Shown one piece after another: positions 1 through 8,999 of a stretch of 8,999 bases of DNA. Within the stretch, counting starts at the first letter, position 1; the number at the start of each line of letters is the position of its first letter. Source of the DNA: JAHJDO01 sp030671985 [NCBI: bacterium] (GTDB lineage: Bacteria; JAHJDO01); assembly GCA_030671985.1 (NCBI GenBank), contig DAOVHI010000052.1, positions 1-8,999 on the forward strand. Direction: 5' to 3'. The translations under genes and the position numbers were made by a program. Below the pieces are notes generated by a model. It searched no databases and was not told the origin of the DNA. It saw nothing but the letters and a program-made list of their open reading frames with translations.

Positions 1-1560
1 GAAGCGGGGGTGTCTGTAAAAGGCGTGTCTGAATTTACCGGTTCCCCGGAGATGCTTGACGGAAGAGTGAAGACTCTTCATCCTAAAATTCATGGCGGGC
101 TTCTCGCGGTCAGGAGCAACAAGGAGCATATGAGACAAGTTGAAGAATATTCTGTTCCGCTGATTGATATGGTCGTAGTGAATCTATATCCGTTTCAAAA
201 GACCATAGCCAAAGAAAATGTCAGCCTTGAAGAAGCGATAGAAAATATTGACATCGGAGGTCCGACAATGCTTCGCAGCGCAGCAAAAAACTACAAGGAT
301 GTTGCCGTTGTGATCGACCCGAACGATTACAAACTCATTGTTGATGAGCTTAAAAACTCGGGAGAAATATCTCTTGAAACAAAACAAAAACTCGCCGTTA
401 AAGTGTTTAGGCACACTGCGGATTATGACAGCGCAATAGACAAATATCTCAGCGAAAACTTATCTAAAGAAAAAATATTAAGACTGAAATTCACTCAAGG
501 AGTATCTTTAAGATATGGCGAAAACTCGCATCAGTCAGCTACCTTTTATATGGACAAAGATTGTACGGAATCAAACCTTGCAACGGCAAAAATTTTGCAT
601 GGCAAAGAGATGTCGTATAATAATTACATAGACGCAAACGGTGCTTTTGAAGCAGTAAAAGATATCAAAGAACAGATTGGAGCAGTTGTGGTAAAGCATA
701 CAAACCCATGTGGATATGCGACAGGCAAGACCCTGAAAGAGGCTGTTGAAAAAGCGTGGATGGGAGATCCGATATCCGCTTTTGGATCAATTGTTGCTGT
801 CACGAGAAAACTTGATTTAGAGACCGCAGAGTTTCTAAAAGGAAAGAATACAAAGCACCTGACATATGCAAAAGATGGAGACAAGTATGTACCTGAGGAT
901 GTTAAAACCAAGCATGTGGAAGTTATAATAGCTCCGGGATATGACAGAGACGCTTTGGAACTTTTAAAGTCTGAAGGCAAGGTATTGCGCATTCTTGAGG
1001 TAGTGCCTCTTGACAGCGGGGAAAGTGAAAAATTTACATATCGAAAGATTGTGGGCGGCATACTTGAGCAGGACAGGGATTTAAAGATCTTTGATATATT
1101 TGATGTCGTTACAAAAGCACCGTTTCCCGATAATAAAAAAGAATTAGCCAAATTTGCGTATAAAGCGTGCAAGCATACTAAGTCCAATGCAATTGTTCTT
1201 TGCAGGGAATATTCACCGGGATGTTTTCAGGTGTTGGGTATGGGTGCCGGTCAGCCAAATAGAGTTGATTCCCTGCGCAAGCTGGCAATTACAAAAGCAA
1301 TGGAGAATCTACAAATTGAATATGACATTCTGAAACCGGAAGGCTCATTAGACGATTATGTAAAAAAAGCGATGTCAGAACTGGTTCTTGCTTCTGACGC
1401 TTTCTTTCCATTTTCTGATACTGTTGAAGAAGCGGCTGGTTTTGGTATTCGCTACATCATTCAGCCGGGTGGATCAAAACGGGACGATGCCTCAATATCC
1501 AAGTCTGACGAGCTCGCTATAGCCATGGTATTTGCCGGAATGCGTCACTTCTTGCATTAA
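1..1560 (+). CDS. purH: Bifunctional AICAR formyltransferase / IMP cyclohydrolase, 5' partial
   Basis: Catalyses the last two steps of de novo IMP synthesis in the cytoplasm: formyl transfer from 10-formyl-THF to AICAR, then ring closure to IMP. The open frame runs in from the window edge, so the GTG at 10 is an internal valine. By comparison with E. coli PurH (529 aa) about 45 N-terminal residues are missing; 519 residues are visible. The MGS-like cyclohydrolase domain shows DGRVKTLHPKIHGG near the start and NIDIGGPTMLRSAAKN. The formyltransferase domain shows RYGENSHQ, the KHTNPCG active-site motif (Lys codon at 694, followed by His), KSNAIVL, GAGQPNRVDS and SDAFFPFSD. It ends in MRHFLH, close to the family's usual MRHF-x-H tail. 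Between the DLETAEFL segment and the conserved VEVIIAP motif there are about 20 more residues than in E. coli. The gene looks intact where visible and supplies the 10-formyl-THF-consuming member of the folate theme in this window. Confidence 0.96.
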   Translation, partial: EAGVSVKGVSEFTGSPEMLDGRVKTLHPKIHGGLLAVRSNKEHMRQVEEYSVPLIDMVVVNLYPFQKTIAKENVSLEEAIENIDIGGPTMLRSAAKNYKDVAVVIDPNDYKLIVDELKNSGEISLETKQKLAVKVFRHTADYDSAIDKYLSENLSKEKILRLKFTQGVSLRYGENSHQSATFYMDKDCTESNLATAKILHGKEMSYNNYIDANGAFEAVKDIKEQIGAVVVKHTNPCGYATGKTLKEAVEKAWMGDPISAFGSIVAVTRKLDLETAEFLKGKNTKHLTYAKDGDKYVPEDVKTKHVEVIIAPGYDRDALELLKSEGKVLRILEVVPLDSGESEKFTYRKIVGGILEQDRDLKIFDIFDVVTKAPFPDNKKELAKFAYKACKHTKSNAIVLCREYSPGCFQVLGMGAGQPNRVDSLRKLAITKAMENLQIEYDILKPEGSLDDYVKKAMSELVLASDAFFPFSDTVEEAAGFGIRYIIQPGGSKRDDASISKSDELAIAMVFAGMRHFLH

Positions 1561-1583: not shown

Positions 1584-3422
1584 ATGTTTCTAAAGATAAG
1601 TCGACATAGCAGGTATCTCCGATTCCGAAATCTTGTTCAAATAATTCTTGTTCTCGTCCTTCTGGCTGTCTTCAATTGGGCAATTGCGAGCTGGCTATTA
1701 TGGTCAAACTACAATCGGTTAGCTATTTCACTGCAGGATAGCCAGTGGCCGTTTGAAGAAGACAAAGTCAACGTAGCCGTATTCCGGGAAGAGCCAGGCT
1801 CAAAACAGAAGAAATTATTTGGACACATGGAGGTTCTGCGGGGCATTGACTGGTTCCACCTCCGGATCGAGTTTGAAAATAAAAGATTTGAAATTGGTGC
1901 AGGCGATACCACGCAGCTCTCACGACCAGAGAGAGGTGTCCATTTTATAGCCCAGCCAACTACCTTTCCAGAATCCCGCCAGGCCTTAGCTGAAGTGGCA
2001 GAATGGATGTCACGGCTAAGATGGTGGCAACGTGTGGCCCTTTCAGTAGTGGCTCATCCTGTGATTACAGGACTAACATACAAAAAGGACGGTCTTTATT
2101 GGCGTATTGCCCTTCGAGGTGGAAATGCTACTGTTGCCATGGATCAATGGCTGGATGAACTCTATGTGAAGGAACCAGCCTCTAAGTATGCATGGCGTAT
2201 AGTCCTGCAGCGTCAATCAGACACTGGAGATTCATCAACCGTTTTTCAAGCATCTTCTGTTCTGACAGTCAAAGTGCCAGTCAACGAAATTGATAAGTCT
2301 CTGGCTGCAGGAATACGAATTCTATGTTTAAACTTTCAGGAAATCAAACCTGAGCCGGATGATTTCCAGTATGAAGGAAAAGGCTGGCTGGTTGTGAAGA
2401 ATGGACAAAGATTATTGTATCTTGAGGGCACAGCGTACGATATCGGTTATCAGCACGGCAGATTGCTCTCATCTTCTGTTAAGCGGCTCTCAGAGCGTAT
2501 AGTTTACGGCGTGGGTCTTTACTATTCCATGGAGAAAGCACAATGGTTTCTTGACGAGGCCAGAAAACTAGTCAAACGACAGCGACCATTCATTGCTCCT
2601 GAATATTTTGAAGAAATGCGCGGTCTTTCGGACGGATCAGGCGTACCTTTGGAAATAATACGAGTGGCTAATATATTCCCTGAATTCTTTCATTGTAGCG
2701 GCGTAGCTGTATTTGGCCGGGCAACTAAAGACAGTAAACTCCTGCACGCGCGAGTATTGGATTATATGACTGAAGTAGGACTGCAGGATGAGGCTGTGGT
2801 CATGGCAGTTAACCGCGAAGGAGCTCTGCGTTTTGTTAATGCGAGTTACGCGGGTTTTATCGGTTCAGTCACTGGAATGAATGAAAAGAAGATTGCCATT
2901 GGTGAGATGGGCGGACGTGGTGAAGGACTCTGGGATGGAACACCTATGAGTCTGCTGCTTCGGGGAGCTCTTGAACATGCGACCACACTTGAAGAAGCTA
3001 TTTCCTATATGCGTGACCGTGCCAGAACCTGTGAGTATTACTATGTAATCAGCGACGGAAATATTCCAGACGCAGTTGGAATTATCGCCAGACCTGATAC
3101 TTTTCAGGTTATTCAGTCCGGAGAAGCTGTAAAGATACTGCCTGAGTCAATTGATAACGCAGTGTTAATGTCGGGAGGAAACCGGTATAAACACCTTGTC
3201 CAGCGCATTCGTGAGCACTATGGACAGATTGATGCCAAAAAACTCTTTGAGATTATAAAAAGACCTGTAGCTATGCAATCGAATCTTCACAATGTTATCT
3301 TTGAGCCGCAAGTACTCCAGGTGTGGGTGGCTAATGCTGCACGGAATGAACCAGCTTGTGACCAAAAACCAGCAATCTATTTCTGGCCGGAACTGTTCCC
3401 CGAGGCGAAGACTAAGAAATAA
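1584..3422 (+). CDS. Membrane-anchored C45-family autoproteolytic acyltransferase/hydrolase
   Basis: A 612-residue protein. Residues about 18-42 form a single hydrophobic segment after a basic N-terminus (KISRHSRYLRFR), suggesting a signal anchor with the bulk outside the membrane. Residues about 45-275 are a domain I do not recognise. From about 280 the C45 (penicillin acyltransferase-like, Ntn-hydrolase) fold is visible: G-x-A-Y-D-I-G-Y-Q-H-G at 282-292, the probable nucleophile Cys371 in FHCSGVAVFGRAT, then ARVLDYM with Arg390 and Asp393, and a C-terminal NLHNVIFEP (Asn567, His569). Family members release an N-terminal Cys by autocleavage and cut or transfer amide/acyl bonds; the substrate here is unknown. 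The residue before the Cys is His, where the fungal acyltransferase has Gly. A GAGG ribosome site lies at 1576-1579, 4 nt before ATG. Codon use seems richer in G/C-ending codons than in purH or the hdr genes, hinting at transfer. Family assignment is firm; role is not. Confidence 0.8.
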   Translation: MFLKISRHSRYLRFRNLVQIILVLVLLAVFNWAIASWLLWSNYNRLAISLQDSQWPFEEDKVNVAVFREEPGSKQKKLFGHMEVLRGIDWFHLRIEFENKRFEIGAGDTTQLSRPERGVHFIAQPTTFPESRQALAEVAEWMSRLRWWQRVALSVVAHPVITGLTYKKDGLYWRIALRGGNATVAMDQWLDELYVKEPASKYAWRIVLQRQSDTGDSSTVFQASSVLTVKVPVNEIDKSLAAGIRILCLNFQEIKPEPDDFQYEGKGWLVVKNGQRLLYLEGTAYDIGYQHGRLLSSSVKRLSERIVYGVGLYYSMEKAQWFLDEARKLVKRQRPFIAPEYFEEMRGLSDGSGVPLEIIRVANIFPEFFHCSGVAVFGRATKDSKLLHARVLDYMTEVGLQDEAVVMAVNREGALRFVNASYAGFIGSVTGMNEKKIAIGEMGGRGEGLWDGTPMSLLLRGALEHATTLEEAISYMRDRARTCEYYYVISDGNIPDAVGIIARPDTFQVIQSGEAVKILPESIDNAVLMSGGNRYKHLVQRIREHYGQIDAKKLFEIIKRPVAMQSNLHNVIFEPQVLQVWVANAARNEPACDQKPAIYFWPELFPEAKTKK

Positions 3423-3526
3423 ATCGAATAAAAAACGTATCTGTTTCATTCTAATCGGCCAGGACATGAAATTTGCTGATAAAGTCTTCGAGGTATTCGC
3501 CAAGGAAGGATTCGCGGAACGCCGGC

Positions 3527-3796
3527 AGGGTAAATCCAATTATTTTAAGCGGGTACTTACCCTCCGCGTATGTGCATAAAATTGCTCCCCGTCCTTTGCT
3601 TTTCCAAAATGCTCTGAATGATGATTTAATACCACGATCATCCGTGGAAATCCTGTACAATACTGCGGGTCCGCCGAAGCAAATTATCTGGTACGATTGT
3701 GTTCATGGCCGTATTGAGAAAGATGCGGTTGTCAACATTGTCCGCGATGGCCTGGCGTGGCTGAAAAATCAACAGACTTTGTCAGCTAAACTATAA
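3527..3796 (+). pseudogene. Alpha/beta-hydrolase, C-terminal remnant
   Basis: Only the last part of an alpha/beta-hydrolase is readable, in the frame opened by a TTG at 3473. Homologous-looking sequence starts near codon 19 of that frame (VNPIILSGY) and continues through HKIAPRPLLF, the acid-bearing loop NDDLIP (probable catalytic Asp50, counted from 3473), and the histidine loop YDCVHGRIE (His78), closing with the helix GLAWLKN. The nucleophile elbow (G-x-S-x-G) and the rest of the N-terminal core are absent in all frames between here and the C45 gene, so a functional enzyme is not possible. In another frame at 3466-3519 the stretch KFADKVFEVFAKEGFA resembles the early helix of such hydrolases and could be a second scrap of the same gene, implying an internal deletion, but this is weak. 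It lies directly behind the C45 gene, another acyl/amide hydrolase, and may have arrived with it. Confidence 0.6.
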
Positions 3797-3927: not shown

Positions 3928-4968
3928 ATGGTAGAATTCGATATGGAAGAGAAAAATGTACTGGTTATCGGAGCAGGAATAGCGGGCGTTACCACAGCTT
4001 TAAAGATTGCAGATAGAGGAATAGCGGTTCATTTAGTAGAAAAAGACTCTTCTGTCGGCGGGCATGCTCAGGAATCTTGCTGTAAAGCGGTGGACAATGT
4101 TTGCACAAAATGCGGGGCTTGTCTTCTAAAGGATAGGATGGACAAGGTAGAAATTCATCCTAATATCAAAATATATTTAGGCTCAAACATATCAGATATT
4201 TCTAAGTCCGAAGATAAATTTTCCGTTCGTATAAAACATAATGATAAAACTAATTCTGTAGAAGTGGATGCAGTAGTCGTTGCAACTGGTTTTACCCCAT
4301 TTGACGCAAGAGGGAAAGGCAGATTTGGCTACGGAAGAATTCCTTATGTTTTTACAGGGCTGGACATTGAGGAGCACTTCAAGAAAAATGGAGAATTCAA
4401 CGAAATCCCAAAGCGAGCAGCATTCATACAATGTGTTGGGTCCAGGGATCCGCATTTAAATAAAGGGTATTGTTCAAGAGTATGCTGCCGTTACGCTTTG
4501 AGGCTCGCCATGATGGTTAGGGAAGCGTTTCCCGAAGTTAAGGTTGATATTTTTCATATGGATATCCAGTCTTCAGGAAAAGAATTTAACATGCTGTATG
4601 ACCAATGTAAGAATGATTCAAAAATAGAATTTATAAAGAGTATACCAACAAGAGCGCGGGAAATTTCCGAGACCAAATCGGTAAGAGTTTTGTATGAAGA
4701 CATGGCAGAAGCTAAACTTATTGAGAGAGATTATGATCTTCTTGTTCTTTCTATAGGGATAATGCCATCAGAGGATAATCAGAGAGTCGAAAATCTTCTC
4801 GGGATTAATATGGACGAATTCGGTTTTTTTGAACCGGTTGATAGTTTTTCTACAAGAACAAATGTTCAAGGTGTTTTTCTATCAGGTACATGTGAAGGAC
4901 CAAAAAGCATATCGGAAGCTATTCGGCATGCAGATAAAACCGCAGTAGATGTAATGGAGTACTTATGA
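3928..4968 (+). CDS. HdrA-like FAD/[4Fe-4S] flavoprotein (HdrA core / QmoA type)
   Basis: A 346-residue soluble flavoprotein related to the FAD subunit of heterodisulfide reductase (HdrA) and to QmoA. Residues 11-39 are the Rossmann FAD-binding segment (GAGIAG at 15-20, ending in the ribose-binding Glu38). Residues 43-80 keep the HdrA pattern of a GG motif, a cysteine cluster (Cys51, 52, 59, 62, 65) and HPNI. The hallmark second cluster motif is IQCVGSRD...YCSRVCC (Cys169, 182, 186, 187), followed by the typical KVDIFHMDIQSSGKEF. An ATG (Val-Ala-Thr-Gly) nucleotide-binding turn is at about 118-121. It lacks HdrA's ferredoxin domains, which sit on the next protein. The ATG at 3928 is chosen as the longest sensible start; the only nearby Shine-Dalgarno-like bases are a weak AAAAGA, and ATG at 3943 (residue 6) is equally possible. 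Its stop overlaps the next start by 4 nt (ATGA), implying translational coupling and a shared complex. The electron donor and acceptor are not shown by sequence. Confidence 0.85.
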   Translation: MVEFDMEEKNVLVIGAGIAGVTTALKIADRGIAVHLVEKDSSVGGHAQESCCKAVDNVCTKCGACLLKDRMDKVEIHPNIKIYLGSNISDISKSEDKFSVRIKHNDKTNSVEVDAVVVATGFTPFDARGKGRFGYGRIPYVFTGLDIEEHFKKNGEFNEIPKRAAFIQCVGSRDPHLNKGYCSRVCCRYALRLAMMVREAFPEVKVDIFHMDIQSSGKEFNMLYDQCKNDSKIEFIKSIPTRAREISETKSVRVLYEDMAEAKLIERDYDLLVLSIGIMPSEDNQRVENLLGINMDEFGFFEPVDSFSTRTNVQGVFLSGTCEGPKSISEAIRHADKTAVDVMEYL

Positions 4969-6125
4969 GCATTCTTATACTCGGCGGCGGTATTGCAGGA
5001 ATAACTGCTGCAACATACCTTGGGGAACAGGGGCAAAAAGTAGCGCTAATTGAAAGAGAAGAAGGATTAGGCGGCAGGCTAAATAATCTTTTCAGCGTAT
5101 ACGATCTGGGTATATCCCCAAAGGATTTTGTCTCCCGGCAAATAACAAAATTAAAAAAGTTCTCAAATGTGGATATATTTACTTGCGCAGAATTAATAGA
5201 GACCAAAGGACATGTTGGGAACTTTAATTCAAAACTCAAAATTAAAAACTCAAAACCAGTTAAAATCAAGCATGGGGCGATTATTATTGCGACGGGGGTT
5301 AATGTATCCGCGCCAAAGATGGATTGCAATTCTCAAAAGATAATTAACCATACTCATCTCGAAGACTACATTTCAAACAACAAGATAAAAAGATTATCCA
5401 AAGTCATATTCTTATGTGATTTTGCTAAAGAAGATTCTCAAATAATAGCATTATCTACGTTAAAGAATGCCTTGCTTCTTAGAGAAAAACTAAGATGCGA
5501 AGTATCTGTCTTGTCTCGCAATATAAAAGTTGCCGGCAAAAAGTTCGAGCAGTTATATACAGCTGTCAGAGAAAAAGGGGTTATATTTTCTGCTGTAGAA
5601 GGCGTAGACGTAGAAGGCTTGCATTTAATATGTGACTGGCTGGTGATTGGGGAAAGCATTCTTCCCGATCACGGTACAGAAGTTCTCTCTCTTACACTTG
5701 GCGTTGAGAGGGATAAGCAAGGATTTTTCCAGAATAACAATGTTCACTTTATGCCAAACTTATCAAATAGGAAAGGCATATTCTTTGCCGGGGCGTGTCA
5801 TATTGATGCAGGGCTGAATGATATATTAGATGATTCGTTGACAGCCGCATATGCTGCTCATAATTTACTTGAAAAGAACACGATAGAAATTGATGAGAAG
5901 ACAGCGGAAGTAGACGAGGAAAAATGCGCGCTTTGCCTTACATGCATACGTTCGTGTCCTCATAAAGCAATAGATATAGAGTTTTCTCGCGAAGTGGGCA
6001 AGAAAGCTGCAAAGATTGTTGAAGAGGCATGTTTTGGATGCGGGATCTGTGCATCTCTATGCCCCTCAAGAGCAATACAGCTTAGAGAATATGAAGATGA
6101 GAAGATACTTAAACTTATAGGATGA
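4965..6125 (+). CDS. HdrA-like flavoprotein with C-terminal 2x[4Fe-4S] ferredoxin domain
   Basis: A 386-residue partner of the preceding protein. The N-terminus is a second FAD-binding Rossmann fold (GGGIAG at residues 7-12, Glu at the end of strand 2, then GLGGR). An IIIATG turn follows, and a C-terminal FAD motif (GIFFAGACHIDAGLNDIL) resembles HdrA's G-x-C-x-x-P region. Residues about 317-375 are a bacterial-type ferredoxin domain with two C-x2-C-x2-C-x3-C motifs: Cys321/324/327/331 and Cys356/359/362/366, the latter closing with PSRAIQL. The central part lacks the CVGSR...YCSRVCC cluster motif present in its neighbour, so the two proteins look like an HdrA divided or duplicated into complementary halves. 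The start ATG lies within the upstream stop (4-nt overlap). An A-rich direct-repeat insert around 5229-5260 encodes a Lys/Asn/Ser-rich loop. Probable role: carry electrons between FAD and ferredoxin or MvhD in a soluble complex. This is inference. Confidence 0.85.
   Translation: MSILILGGGIAGITAATYLGEQGQKVALIEREEGLGGRLNNLFSVYDLGISPKDFVSRQITKLKKFSNVDIFTCAELIETKGHVGNFNSKLKIKNSKPVKIKHGAIIIATGVNVSAPKMDCNSQKIINHTHLEDYISNNKIKRLSKVIFLCDFAKEDSQIIALSTLKNALLLREKLRCEVSVLSRNIKVAGKKFEQLYTAVREKGVIFSAVEGVDVEGLHLICDWLVIGESILPDHGTEVLSLTLGVERDKQGFFQNNNVHFMPNLSNRKGIFFAGACHIDAGLNDILDDSLTAAYAAHNLLEKNTIEIDEKTAEVDEEKCALCLTCIRSCPHKAIDIEFSREVGKKAAKIVEEACFGCGICASLCPSRAIQLREYEDEKILKLIG
5229..5260 (+). repeat. A-rich short direct repeat inside the second flavoprotein gene
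   Basis: The 10-mer AAACTCAAAA occurs at 5232-5241 and again at 5246-5255 within a stretch made almost only of A, C and T. In frame it encodes NSKLKIKNSK, a low-complexity loop between two conserved strands. It resembles the TTCAAAATTAAAAA-type simple sequence dispersed in many AT-rich genomes, but no second copy occurs in this window. Confidence 0.4.
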
Positions 6126-6132
6126 TTTTATA

Positions 6133-6528
6133 ATGGCATATAAACCAAATATAACAATTTTTTGCTGTGAGAATTCAGTTTATGAAACCGCCTTAAATGT
6201 TAGCAAACGCCACAGCAATATTCAGATTATAAAGGTTCCATGTTCCGGGGAGATCAGCAGTATTCACATCCTCAAATGTTTTGAATCAGGCAGGGACATG
6301 GTTATAGTAATTGCATGTATAGAGGAGGCATGCCACTTTATAAATGGGAATATAAAAGTTGGAAAAGTTGTAGAAGCTGCTCGTAACAGGTTGAAGGAAT
6401 TGGACATCGATGATAAACGCTTGCAAATTCTCAATTTTGCTCCTAATATGGATGAAAAATTCCATAGTGCTTTTGAGGACATAGTATTACAGGCTTCAGA
6501 ACTTGGGTCAATATATAAAAAGCGATAG
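6133..6528 (+). CDS. MvhD/FlpD-like hydrogenase delta-type iron-sulfur electron-transfer protein
   Basis: A 131-residue protein covering the whole MvhD domain. MvhD family proteins carry a [2Fe-2S] cluster and pass electrons between HdrA and a hydrogenase or other electron donor. Family landmarks: the N-terminal strand ITIFCCENSVY (Cys11, Cys12), IIKVPCSGEISS (Cys37, the invariant CSG), the ESGRDMVIVIACIEEACHFINGN segment (Cys62, Cys67, matching G-C-x4-D-C-H-Y-x2-G-N), and RLKELDIDDKRLQILNFAP. Where the family usually has F-C-C-x-x-C, this protein has Ser15 in place of the last Cys, and the glycine of the usual GC pair is Ala61. It therefore looks divergent, and its cluster ligation may differ. 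AGGA at 6119-6122, inside the end of the upstream gene, sits 10 nt before the ATG. The gap to the flavoprotein gene is 7 nt and to folD 16 nt, so all four genes appear co-transcribed. Confidence 0.85.
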   Translation: MAYKPNITIFCCENSVYETALNVSKRHSNIQIIKVPCSGEISSIHILKCFESGRDMVIVIACIEEACHFINGNIKVGKVVEAARNRLKELDIDDKRLQILNFAPNMDEKFHSAFEDIVLQASELGSIYKKR

Positions 6529-6544
6529 AAAGGATACTAGGCAT

Positions 6545-7435
6545 ATGGCTGCAAAAATAATAGATGGTAAGGCAATTGCTGCTGAGATGCAGGATGAGAT
6601 GAAGGTTGAGGCGGAGAGTCTTAAGCGTGAGTACGACTTAACCCCCGGGCTTGCTGTTGTGCTCGTAGGTGATAATCCGGCTTCAAGGGTTTATGTGAGC
6701 ATGAAAAAAAAGGCATGCGCGAGATTGGGCATATATTCTGAGGAGCACAAACTGTCATCAGATACTCCGGAACACGACTTGCTGGAACTTATTAATAAGC
6801 TCAATGTAAATGAGAAAATTCATGGCATTCTTGTTCAGCTTCCTTTGCCAGACCACATTAATGAAGATAAAATTCTTAACGCTATTGATCATTTAAAGGA
6901 TGTTGACGGTTTTCATCCTATCAATGTAGGCAATCTTGTTATTGGCAAGCCTTCTTTTCTGCCGTGCACTCCATATGGAATTCAGCAGCTTCTTCTTAAA
7001 AGCAATATTCAGATTGAAGGCAAACACGTGGTTGTGGTCGGCAGAAGCAATATTGTAGGGAAACCTGTTGCGCTAATTCTGCTTCAAAAGACGCAGGATG
7101 CTAATGCAACGGTGACGGTATGCCATTCACGAAGCGGGGACTTGTCTTATTATACTAAGCAGGCGGATATATTGATCGCGGCTATCGGAAGAGCAGAAAT
7201 GATAAAGAAGGATATGGTCAAGGATGGTGCGGTAGTTATAGATGTTGGAGTTAATCGGGTTGATGATCCAAGCAGAGAAAGAGGATACAAACTTGTTGGG
7301 GATGTGGATTTCAATGAAGTGAAGGAGGTAGCAAGCGCCATTACACCTGTTCCGGGCGGGGTTGGTCCTATGACAATTACAATGCTTATGCACAATACTA
7401 TAAAAGCTGCAAGACTAAGAACAATCAAACATTAA
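6545..7435 (+). CDS. folD: Methylene-THF dehydrogenase / methenyl-THF cyclohydrolase
   Basis: A 296-residue FolD, the family's usual length. It reversibly oxidises 5,10-methylene-THF to methenyl-THF with NAD(P)+ and hydrolyses that to 10-formyl-THF, in the cytoplasm. Catalytic residues line up with E. coli numbering: Tyr50 and Lys54 in YVSMKKKA, Gln98 in VQLPLPDH, Asp121 in DVDGFHPIN. Other signatures are PCTPYGI (140-146), the dinucleotide loop GRSNIVGKP (166-174), CHSRSGDL, DVGVNRV, GDVDF and the C-terminal TPVPGGVGPMTITMLMHNT. The ATG at 6545 is chosen because AGGA at 6531-6534 lies 10 nt upstream and the protein then begins like other FolDs (AAKIIDGKAIA). An upstream TTG at 6503 would overlap mvhD and add 14 non-homologous residues. 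As last gene of the hdr-like/mvhD operon it links that redox module to folate chemistry, in either the biosynthetic or the Wood-Ljungdahl direction. No active-site residue is missing. Confidence 0.97.
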   Translation: MAAKIIDGKAIAAEMQDEMKVEAESLKREYDLTPGLAVVLVGDNPASRVYVSMKKKACARLGIYSEEHKLSSDTPEHDLLELINKLNVNEKIHGILVQLPLPDHINEDKILNAIDHLKDVDGFHPINVGNLVIGKPSFLPCTPYGIQQLLLKSNIQIEGKHVVVVGRSNIVGKPVALILLQKTQDANATVTVCHSRSGDLSYYTKQADILIAAIGRAEMIKKDMVKDGAVVIDVGVNRVDDPSRERGYKLVGDVDFNEVKEVASAITPVPGGVGPMTITMLMHNTIKAARLRTIKH

Positions 7436-7447
7436 AAATATGCGAAT

Positions 7448-7849
7448 TCACTCGTAATCCCAAAGAGAGAAATTTTCATTATGAAATATTTTTAAGGTTC
7501 TTTCTACAATCTTTGCCATATTCTTGACACTTGGAACTGCCGGTGAATGAATATCCCAAACGCCTAACCCTATCTGTCTTTTAAAATTCATTCCTTCAAA
7601 GTATCTTATAATATCGCCTTTGCTTCTGGATGCCTCAATAGTAATTACATCAAAATCCATCTTTTGAATATACTTTACAATCTCATTAAATTCGAAATAA
7701 CACATATGAGTATGGATTTAAGTCTCAGCCTACAAGCAAAGCGCAATTTGATAACTTACCTGATCAATAGAAATATCTTCTCTTACATAACTCCATGCCA
7801 GAATTGTAATTGGTCCTGTCAGCATTCCTTTCACTGGTTTTTTATCTTC
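7448..7849 (-). pseudogene. metE: Cobalamin-independent methionine synthase, decayed 3' fragment
   Basis: Remnant of the C-terminal catalytic half of MetE, which transfers the methyl group of 5-methyl-THF (polyglutamate) to homocysteine. Two homologous blocks share one frame. The upstream block (7840 down to about 7734) reads [14 protein letters not shown]...[15 protein letters not shown]. The downstream block (about 7717 to 7448) reads [13 protein letters not shown]...[10 protein letters not shown]...[12 protein letters not shown]. In E. coli MetE these blocks are separated by about 55 residues, including the IIQIDEPALREGLPL zinc/substrate region; here only a few codons and two stops intervene (TAG at 7730-7732, TAA at 7718-7720). 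The TAA sits exactly where MetE has Gln before IHTHM, so it looks like a CAA-to-TAA nonsense change. The 3' end also breaks off at LWDYE, without the VNPDCGLKTR terminus, 12 nt from the end of convergent folD. The first two-thirds of metE is absent; the remnant abuts thyX directly. Not functional as read. Confidence 0.88.
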
Positions 7850-8553: not shown

Positions 8554-8999
8554 TTAATTTCTCAAAATGGACAAGACCTCTATTGCCGCAGAAACTCTAC
8601 CGAACGGGGGCATTATATATACGCCATCCACCATGTTTTTTGCTTCAAGAAGTGCTTCTTGAGCTATGCGAATACCTTCTTTTTTTGCTTCATCTTCCCG
8701 AGCATAAGAATGTATGCGCGACAATATCTTTTTGGGAATAGACATGCCGGGAACCTCATTGTGAAGAAAATCTGCGTTTCGCGCGCTGGCTAATGGCAAA
8801 ATGCCAACGAGAATAGGTATTTTATGGGAAGAAACTTTATCCAAAAAGGTTTCAAGAAGCTTTATAGTATAAACAGGCTGGGTCAAAGCATATTCTGCGC
8901 CGGCATCCACCTTGCGCTTAAATCGATCTATCTCTTTATCCAGATTAATAGCTCCCGGATTGGCTCCTATGCCAACCAAAAATTTTGTAGCTGCTCCTA
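8554..8999 (-). CDS. metF: 5,10-methylenetetrahydrofolate reductase (MetF/YitJ family), C-terminal part
   Basis: The C-terminal 148 residues of a methylene-THF reductase, which reduces methylene-THF to 5-methyl-THF using a TIM-barrel-bound FAD. The frame is open to the window edge (AATKFLVGIGANP), so the true start lies beyond position 8999; the TTG at 8979 is internal. Landmarks: IGANPGA, DKEIDRFKRKVDAGAEYALTQPVY (Gln of TQP contacts folate in the family), ILVGILPLASARNADFLHNEVPG and the closing GVYIMPPFGRVSAAIEVL. The combination NADFLHNEVPG plus VYIMPPF is most like the reductase half of bifunctional homocysteine methyltransferase/MTHFR (B. subtilis YitJ type) and related standalone enzymes; which one applies cannot be told because the N-terminus, including the catalytic Glu, is outside. 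It reads toward thyX and metE, so the three probably once formed a methionine/thymidylate gene group. Confidence 0.88.
   Translation of the reverse strand, partial: GAATKFLVGIGANPGAINLDKEIDRFKRKVDAGAEYALTQPVYTIKLLETFLDKVSSHKIPILVGILPLASARNADFLHNEVPGMSIPKKILSRIHSYAREDEAKKEGIRIAQEALLEAKNMVDGVYIMPPFGRVSAAIEVLSILRN

What the first reader, a model, noticed from the sequence alone, without database searches (positions are those of the whole stretch)
3928..7435. HdrA split into two flavoproteins, coupled to MvhD and FolD, with no HdrB/HdrC
Sequence shows two consecutive HdrA-related proteins with complementary parts. The first has the CVGSR...YCSRVCC cluster motif and no ferredoxin domain; the second lacks that motif but has two C-terminal [4Fe-4S] sites. 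An MvhD homologue and folD follow with tiny gaps. Known comparators are Moorella MetFV-HdrABC-MvhD (methylene-THF reductase with Hdr subunits) and QmoAB. Here HdrB and HdrC, the usual disulfide-reducing part, are not next door, and the module sits with FolD instead. Inference: a compact FAD/Fe-S complex that exchanges electrons, possibly by bifurcation, between NAD(P)H, ferredoxin and the folate C1 pathway, with the convergent MetF-family gene as possible partner.
Basis: partly seen in the sequence, partly recalled or inferred. Interest (0 to 1): 0.62.

Follow-up and report, generated by a model that had tools for sequence, protein, structure and literature searches.

The report
Paired HdrA-like flavoproteins beside folate genes
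Three neighbouring genes encode two complementary electron-carrying flavoproteins and a small iron-sulfur partner that, in relatives from two different phyla, sit inside a gene cluster for making methyl groups on folate; in this small genome the rest of that cluster was not found.

Summary
In detail: flavo1, flavo2, an MvhD and folD form a tight run. The flavo1/flavo2 pair occurs in 11 genomes of three phyla with complementary sites: the HdrA four-Cys cluster is kept in 11 of 11 flavo1 and 0 of 11 flavo2. Each has its own FAD domain; they fall with the N- and C-type halves of the double, Moorella-like HdrA, not with QmoA/QmoB.

In six genomes the trio is followed by (folD)-metV-metF; in four of these the run was read on through hdrC, giant hdrA, mvhD and NAD(P)H/Fe-S subunits, with no hdrB in the cluster. 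In three genomes of another phylum it follows hdrC-hdrB.

Best reading: an extra HdrA-type relay module of an NAD(P)H-linked Hdr-type methylene-THF reductase without HdrB in its cluster. The window's genome (92% complete) shows no HdrB, HdrC, giant HdrA, MetV, CODH or ACS: here the trio looks stranded, yet constrained. Its convergent MetF gene is the bifunctional kind. Against: three of four second-phylum genomes carry HdrB elsewhere.

The parts
3928..4968 (+). flavo1: HdrA-like FAD protein, 346 aa (orthologues in the genus start at Met6, 3943)
   Evidence: model TM 0.85-0.87 by query to HdrA/sHdrA
4078..4122 (+). N-terminal motif CCKA-x4-C-x2-C-x2-C of flavo1 (residues 51-65); possible extra Fe-S site
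   Evidence: CKA-x3/4-C-x2-C-x2-C kept in 11 of 11 orthologues, absent in the Qmo and giant HdrA rows; low model confidence there
4432..4488 (+). HdrA four-Cys cluster site of flavo1 (C169, C182, C186, C187)
4965..6125 (+). flavo2: HdrA-like FAD protein with C-terminal ferredoxin domain, lacks the four-Cys site, 386 aa
5904..6092 (+). two [4Fe-4S] motifs at the C terminus of flavo2
   Evidence: PF12838/PF00037; two CxxCxxCxxxC motifs in 10 of 11 orthologues, the 11th cut by its contig end
6133..6528 (+). MvhD/FlpD homologue, 131 aa, separate gene
   Evidence: PF02662 E 1.7e-26; MvhD of 5odc, 7bkb; alignment
6545..7435 (+). folD, bifunctional methylene-THF dehydrogenase/cyclohydrolase, 296 aa from the ATG at 6545
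   Evidence: (run from 6548)
7448..7705 (-). metE fragment (85 aa, profile positions 642-721 of 754): junction where relatives have metV-metF-hdrC-hdrA
8554..8997 (-).
   Evidence: NF006396 positions 459-602 of 611
1..1560 (+). purH (5' end cut): left neighbour of flavo1 in G002 and G003 too

Best explanation
flavo1, flavo2 and MvhD form one electron-transfer module of the HdrA kind, an unfused paralogous counterpart of the double-HdrA + MvhD unit of Hdr-type methylene-THF reductases. Shown by sequence: separate FAD domains, complementary Fe-S sites, a separate MvhD, and a neighbourhood in seven genomes (two phyla) with MetVF; six of these also show HdrC and the giant double HdrA, five a second MvhD and two Fe-S proteins, four the FAD/NAD(P)H protein; no hdrB in the cluster. 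Inferred: MvhD hands electrons to the ferredoxin domain of flavo2, they pass through the two flavins to the four-Cys cluster of flavo1 and on, through HdrC, to MetV-MetF, which reduces methylene-THF supplied by FolD; NAD(P)H enters through the FlxA-like subunit; bifurcation or confurcation with ferredoxin is done mainly by the giant HdrA. In the window's own genome the rest of this complex is not found, so here the trio either serves another NAD(P)H/ferredoxin partner, or is a remnant still held by selection, or its partners lie in the unassembled part.
For: purH-flavo1-flavo2-mvhD-(150 aa)-folD-metV-metF-hdrC-..-giant hdrA-mvhD-Fe-S-Fe-S-FNR in G003 and G002 (families of the G003 proteins); the folD-to-Fe-S part in G001 on another contig. 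In a second phylum: metV-metF-flavo1-flavo2-mvhD-metV-metF-hdrC-giant hdrA-mvhD-Fe-S-Fe-S-FNR in G268 and G385, up to the start of hdrA in G387; folD upstream in G385 and G386. G268 runs on into CooC, CODH and AcsB; G385 has a Prismane/CODH-family gene on the trio's contig (C153:19337-21031). HdrB family 0 of 5 in the window's genus; no hdrB hit in the 12 cluster stretches of the MetVF-type genomes. flavo1 and flavo2 each one clade (100/100), on the N-half and C-half side of giant HdrA. Passages of PMC9430772: Sporomusa MetF pulled down with HdrA, HdrB and MvhD; Moorella HdrA has the same TrxR-GltD-TrxR layout.
Against: In G046, G191 and G323 the trio is next to hdrC-hdrB and giant hdrA, with no metV, metF or folD in the stretches read. 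G268, G385 and G386 each carry an hdrC-hdrB pair on another contig, so HdrB could act in trans there. G386 shows no metF in its first metVF copy and no hdrC/hdrA in the stretch taken. The window's genome lacks all partners tested. G002/G003 have MetVF but no ACS, so the pathway direction is unknown. [quoted passage not shown] No biochemical data on the trio; no complex was modelled.
Confidence: 0.5

Rival explanations
1. The trio is a general second HdrA unit for HdrC-HdrB (thiol/disulfide or other acceptor), in cis or in trans, and the MetVF neighbourhood is secondary.
For: hdrC-hdrB-flavo1-flavo2-mvhD-giant hdrA in G046, G191, G323; hdrC-hdrB elsewhere in G268, G385, G386.
Against: 7 of 11 genomes with the pair have the folate version (six linked, G001 on split contigs), in two phyla; the window's genus has no HdrB found (0 of 5) and G387 none.
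Confidence: 0.25
2. In the window's genome the trio is a decaying remnant with no present function.
For: Partners not found, metE fragment and other gene debris beside it, small genome; G004 of the same genus shows no flavo1, MetV, MvhD or HdrC; flavo2 branch of G000 is 0.133 against 0.069 for G001.
Against: Frames intact, ligand cysteines kept, NG86 dN/dS of the trio 0.095-0.18 in pairs with G000 against 0.18-0.35 among G001-G003; the pairs with G000 are more diverged, so the two ranges are not strictly alike, and a recent loss would not show.
Confidence: 0.25
3. The trio is a self-sufficient FolD-coupled bifurcating complex.
For: folD follows in G000, and after a 150-aa gene in G002 and G003; the window's genus keeps E and K in flavo2 (E133/K167 in the window), the residue pair linked with bifurcating HdrA.
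Against: Relatives place it inside a larger cluster; no folD in the stretches of G046, G191 and G323; flavo1 lacks the Lys; FolD enzymes need only NAD(P) (general knowledge).
Confidence: 0.08
4. The pair is QmoA/QmoB with MvhD split off.
For: Similar domain sum (QmoA-size + QmoB-size + MvhD).
Against: AU test rejects flavo1+QmoA (p 0.0036) and flavo2+QmoB (p 0.0018); QmoB keeps the four Cys and both Qmo proteins keep Lys. Only one Qmo pair was in the tree. No QmoC or AprAB seen by eye in the neighbourhoods read; no search was made for them.
Confidence: 0.04

Closest known systems
Hdr-type methylene-THF reductase MetVF-HdrABC-MvhD of Moorella thermoacetica and Sporomusa ovata
   Same: MetVF, HdrC, MvhD and a giant HdrA with TrxR-GltD-TrxR layout in the relatives' clusters
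   Different: no HdrB in the cluster; an added flavo1/flavo2/MvhD trio; added FlxA-like NAD(P)H and Fe-S subunits; in the window itself only the trio and folD are seen
Double HdrA (type II of methane-metabolising archaea; the Moorella giant)
   Same: two TrxR-like FAD units, N-type and C-type; N and C halves form separate clades (PMC12054007, passages; our)
   Different: the trio is unfused, its C-type unit has lost the four-Cys cluster, and its N-type unit has Arg for Lys and a Cys motif not seen in the giant HdrA rows
QmoA/QmoB
   Same: two HdrA-like flavoproteins, MvhD domain in QmoB (recalled)
   Different: separate clade, other residues, other neighbourhood
sHdrA of Hyphomicrobium (6tjr)
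   Same: size and fold of flavo1 (TM 0.85/0.87)
   Different: sulfur-oxidation context (recalled); flavo1 has a flavo2 and MvhD partner
hydB-hdrAC of candidate phylum NPL-UPA2 (Unc8)
   Same: HdrA and HdrC without HdrB, HydB-like Fe-S protein instead (PMC6305446, passages)
   Different: the passages read name no flavo1/flavo2 pair and no MetVF linkage; placed with EtfAB

Membership tests
Hdr-type MTHFR (MetVF-HdrABC-MvhD) | MetV and MetF encoded with the Hdr genes | tested here: not met
   window genome: PF12225 none; met in G001, G002, G003 and seen in G268, G385, G386, G387
Hdr-type MTHFR (MetVF-HdrABC-MvhD) | HdrB present (CCG domain) | tested here: not met
   0 of 5 genomes of the genus; G268, G385, G386 have one elsewhere
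Hdr-type MTHFR (MetVF-HdrABC-MvhD) | giant HdrA, HdrC and MvhD | tested here: inconclusive
   in the window's genome only MvhD found, genome 92% complete; all three in G001-G003
Hdr-type MTHFR (MetVF-HdrABC-MvhD) | physical complex with MetVF and methylene-THF reduction | not testable with these tools
   needs protein
HdrA family | TrxR-like FAD domain with HdrA four-Cys cluster | tested here: met
   flavo1 yes; flavo2 has the FAD domain but not the cluster
Bifurcating HdrA | Glu356 and Lys409 equivalents | tested here: inconclusive
   flavo1 E yes, K replaced by R in 11 of 11; flavo2 E in 6 of 11 and K in 5 of 11, both in the window
QmoAB | clade with QmoA and QmoB | tested here: not met
   AU p 0.0036 and 0.0018, one Qmo reference pair only
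Wood-Ljungdahl pathway | CODH/ACS in the genome | tested here: not met
   PF03598 0 of 5 in the genus; PF03063 none in G000, G001, G004, one each in G002 and G003, 549 and 566 aa, of hybrid-cluster-protein size (that reading is mine)

The most novel reading that the evidence does not exclude
A new, HdrB-free architecture of the Hdr-type methylene-THF reductase, in which a heterodimer of two specialised HdrA paralogues (one holding the output cluster and a new Cys motif, the other the ferredoxin input) with its own MvhD replaces the HdrB end and links a double-bifurcating giant HdrA to MetVF; the trio can also outlive that complex and work alone in a reduced genome.
Probability: 0.22. Interest if true: 0.7.

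Novelty: new variant of a known kind. Interest (0 to 1): 0.5.

Why it matters
How acetogens and their kin couple methylene-THF reduction to energy conservation is open: for the Moorella Hdr-type enzyme the second acceptor is unknown (PMC9430772, passages). A conserved pair of extra HdrA-like subunits, in a cluster without hdrB and in two phyla, shows which parts may be exchangeable and gives sequence marks (R for K, the CKA..C..C..C motif, missing four-Cys site) that can be tested.

Tried and rejected
Qmo reading: rejected by tree, AU test and residues (one Qmo pair). Convergent MetF as partner: rejected, bifunctional type. Chance or misassembled pair: rejected, the pair recurs in 10 other genomes and its left neighbour purH in G002 and G003. 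K-to-R as a mark of flavo1 alone: one of the nine 'other' HdrA rows (H_G275a) also has R. Long-branch artefact for flavo2: two quick trees, each with one flavo2 family left out and the trait columns removed, still give one flavo2 clade (SH-aLRT 99) on the giant-C side (98 and 99). Naming the organism: the one named record of the genus found is G001 = DAOVKY01, 'bacterium isolate CSMAG_1431' (its contig L042 is identical to L036); the phylum name was not found. The genome-contig scan confirmed 3 of 366 stretches. In the survey of 385 genomes only four candidates per genome were scored, so orthologues in HdrA-rich genomes may have been missed. Models of single chains only: flavo1 pLDDT 77, flavo2 66, too weak for site geometry.

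Literature searches for an earlier description of the pair: (listings), passages of PMC9430772, PMC5736913, PMC7325909, PMC6085437, PMC6305446 and PMC12054007. None of the listings or passages describes it; the other papers were seen as listings only.
Full report
WHAT IS THERE. The window is the whole of contig C96 (8999 b) of a 1.25 Mb, 152-contig genome, 92% complete. One NCBIfam model, HdrA2, is hit piecewise by flavo1, flavo2 and MvhD. Both flavoproteins have their own FAD domain, so this is not one HdrA unit cut in two.

COMPLEMENTARY SITES. phmmer alignments to the solved HdrA 5odc place E148 and R192 of flavo1 at the E356 and K409 positions (counted by hand from the printed alignment) and C169, C182, C186, C187 at the four-Cys site. 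In my alignment of 47 rows the four Cys are kept in 11 of 11 flavo1 and 0 of 11 flavo2; K409 is R in 11 of 11 flavo1 (and in one of nine other HdrA rows); flavo2 has K in 5 of 11 and E in 6 of 11 (both in the window's genus, 4 of 4). All 7 giant HdrA used have four Cys, E and K in both halves. flavo1 has a motif CKA-x3/4-C-x2-C-x2-C in 11 of 11 that neither Qmo protein nor any giant HdrA row shows. flavo2 carries two CxxCxxCxxxC motifs in 10 of 11; G001 is cut by its contig end. Seven of 11 flavo1 have an inserted stretch with eight Cys; the four of the window's genus lack it. flavo2 of G191, G323 and the four G268-family genomes has about 146-152 extra N-terminal residues.

WHERE ELSE. A survey of 385 genomes with a flavo2 alignment gave 8 genomes at 295.9 bits or more (G000-G003, G046, G191, G323, G268), the next match being 227.5 bits to another HdrA-like frame (only four candidates per genome were scored). 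In the phylum of G268, 4 of 9 genomes have it (3 new: G385, G386, G387). In the phylum of G191, 3 of 4, none new. Total: 11 genomes in three phyla (kinship codes of the tool: the window's genus shares only the domain with the others). G004 of the window's genus has none.

NEIGHBOURS. G003 and G002: purH-flavo1-flavo2-mvhD-150 aa protein-folD-metV-metF-hdrC-(other genes)-giant hdrA (1482-1487 aa)-mvhD-Fe-S protein-Fe-S protein-FNR-like protein. Pfam on the G003 proteins confirms MetV (PF12225), MTHFR, HdrC-like Fer4, FlpD, Fer4_22 and FAD/NAD binding. G001 has the trio's start (cut in flavo2) and the folD-to-Fe-S part on two contigs. G268 and G385: metV-metF-flavo1-flavo2-mvhD-metV-metF-hdrC-giant hdrA-mvhD-Fe-S-Fe-S-FNR; G387 the same up to its contig end in hdrA; G386 the trio and second metVF, with metF of the first copy not seen and no hdrC/hdrA in the stretch. 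folD lies upstream in G385 and G386. In G268 CooC-, AcsE-, AcsC/D- and CODH-like genes (read by eye; the CODH frame also PF03063) and AcsB (Pfam) follow; in G385 a PF03063 gene lies on the same contig. G046, G191, G323: hdrC-hdrB-flavo1-flavo2-mvhD-giant hdrA (cut by the contig end in G323), then mvhD-hdrC-hdrB in G046 and G191. So giant hdrA is on the trio's contig stretch in 8 of 11 genomes (two of them cut), on another contig in G001, and not seen in G386 and G000. No hdrB matches in the 12 cluster stretches of the MetVF-type genomes, but G268, G385 and G386 carry an hdrC-hdrB pair elsewhere, in G268 next to another hdrA-like gene.

THE WINDOW'S OWN GENOME. No HdrB, no HdrC like that of G003, no giant HdrA (only flavo1 and flavo2 match), one MvhD, no MetV, no ACS, no CODH/HCP. 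Fhs is present. Right of folD, where relatives have metV, the window has a metE fragment, thyX and a bifunctional MTHFR tail, so a rearrangement or loss is visible; 8% of the genome may be missing. dN/dS (NG86) in pairs with G000: flavo1 0.14-0.17, flavo2 0.135-0.18, mvhD 0.095-0.10, folD 0.09-0.12, purH 0.085 (one pair); among G001-G003: flavo1 0.18-0.20, flavo2 0.25-0.31, mvhD 0.35 (one pair), folD 0.10-0.13. YN00 agrees where it ran (it failed for mvhD G003-G002 and hdrC G003-G002). The trio is thus constrained, though a recent loss of function would not show; flavo2's G000 branch is about twice that of G001.

TREE. IQ-TREE on 47 rows, 332 columns: flavo1 one clade (100/100) next to the N-halves of giant HdrA and kin (96/94 for the joint set of 21 rows), flavo2 one clade (100/100) on the side of giant C-halves (100/99 for the set of 23 rows), Qmo pair apart (100/98), on the N side. 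AU rejects joining flavo1 with QmoA (p 0.0036) and flavo2 with QmoB (p 0.0018) (one Nitrospira Qmo pair from L043, named by me from its sat-aprBA-qmoABC order). Robust to leaving out either long-branched flavo2 family and the trait columns. The tree is unrooted, so fission of a double HdrA and an unfused older state are not told apart. PMC12054007 (passages) reports separate N and C clades for archaeal type II HdrA.

STRUCTURE. flavo1 model (pLDDT 77) matches HdrA 5odi (TM 0.87 by query) and sHdrA 6tjr (0.85/0.87); flavo2 (pLDDT 66) matches HdrA weakly (0.61-0.64). No complex was modelled.

MECHANISM. Shown: parts, residues, neighbourhoods. Inferred: NAD(P)H enters at the FlxA-like subunit, MvhD subunits feed the ferredoxin domains of giant HdrA and flavo2, the giant HdrA (E/K in both halves) is the likely bifurcating flavoprotein, flavo2/flavo1 relay to HdrC and MetVF. 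A cluster without HdrB has a precedent: HdrA-HdrC with HydB in NPL-UPA2 (PMC6305446, passages). In Sporomusa MetF binds HdrA, HdrB and MvhD in pull-downs, though no stable complex was purified (PMC9430772, passages).

VERDICT. Observation confirmed; interpretation right about the folate link and the lack of HdrB in the window's genus, wrong about Qmo kinship and the MetF partner, and unsupported on self-sufficiency. A new variant of the Hdr-type methylene-THF reductase kind, seen in the window as a seemingly stranded part.

Noticed in passing
1584-3422: C45-type autoproteolytic acyltransferase/hydrolase between purH and flavo1; relatives G002 and G003 lack it there.
   Followed up: partly
3473-3793: 107-aa frame that reads like the C-terminal end of an alpha/beta hydrolase (by eye; no family hit): possible gene debris.
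   Followed up: no
7448-7705: metE fragment of 85 aa with both ends missing, at the junction where relatives carry metV-metF-hdrC-hdrA.
   Followed up: partly
L031:6684-11132, L091:11461-15900, L037:7214-11686: Giant HdrA of about 1480-1490 aa with a GltD-like insert, as described for Moorella, in three phyla.
   Followed up: partly
L031:15897-16349: Conserved 150-aa secreted- or membrane-like protein (by eye) between mvhD and folD in G002 and G003, no Pfam family, absent at that place in the window.
   Followed up: no
L091:4104-5659 and 9213-10819: Two divergent metV-metF pairs flank the trio in G268 (also G385, G387).
   Followed up: no
L036:1186-1838: Toxin-antitoxin-like gene pair (PIN-type, by eye) directly left of flavo1 in G001, where G002 and G003 have purH.
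   Followed up: no
L095, L096, L097, L099: Other large clusters with several HdrA-like ORFs, HdrC-like proteins and MvhD, in part beside NuoE/F/G-like ORFs (read by eye), in G275, G138, G107, G202.
   Followed up: no
L114:416-3272: hdrC-hdrB-hdrA-like run elsewhere in G268, i.e. an ordinary-looking Hdr set besides the trio's cluster.
   Followed up: partly
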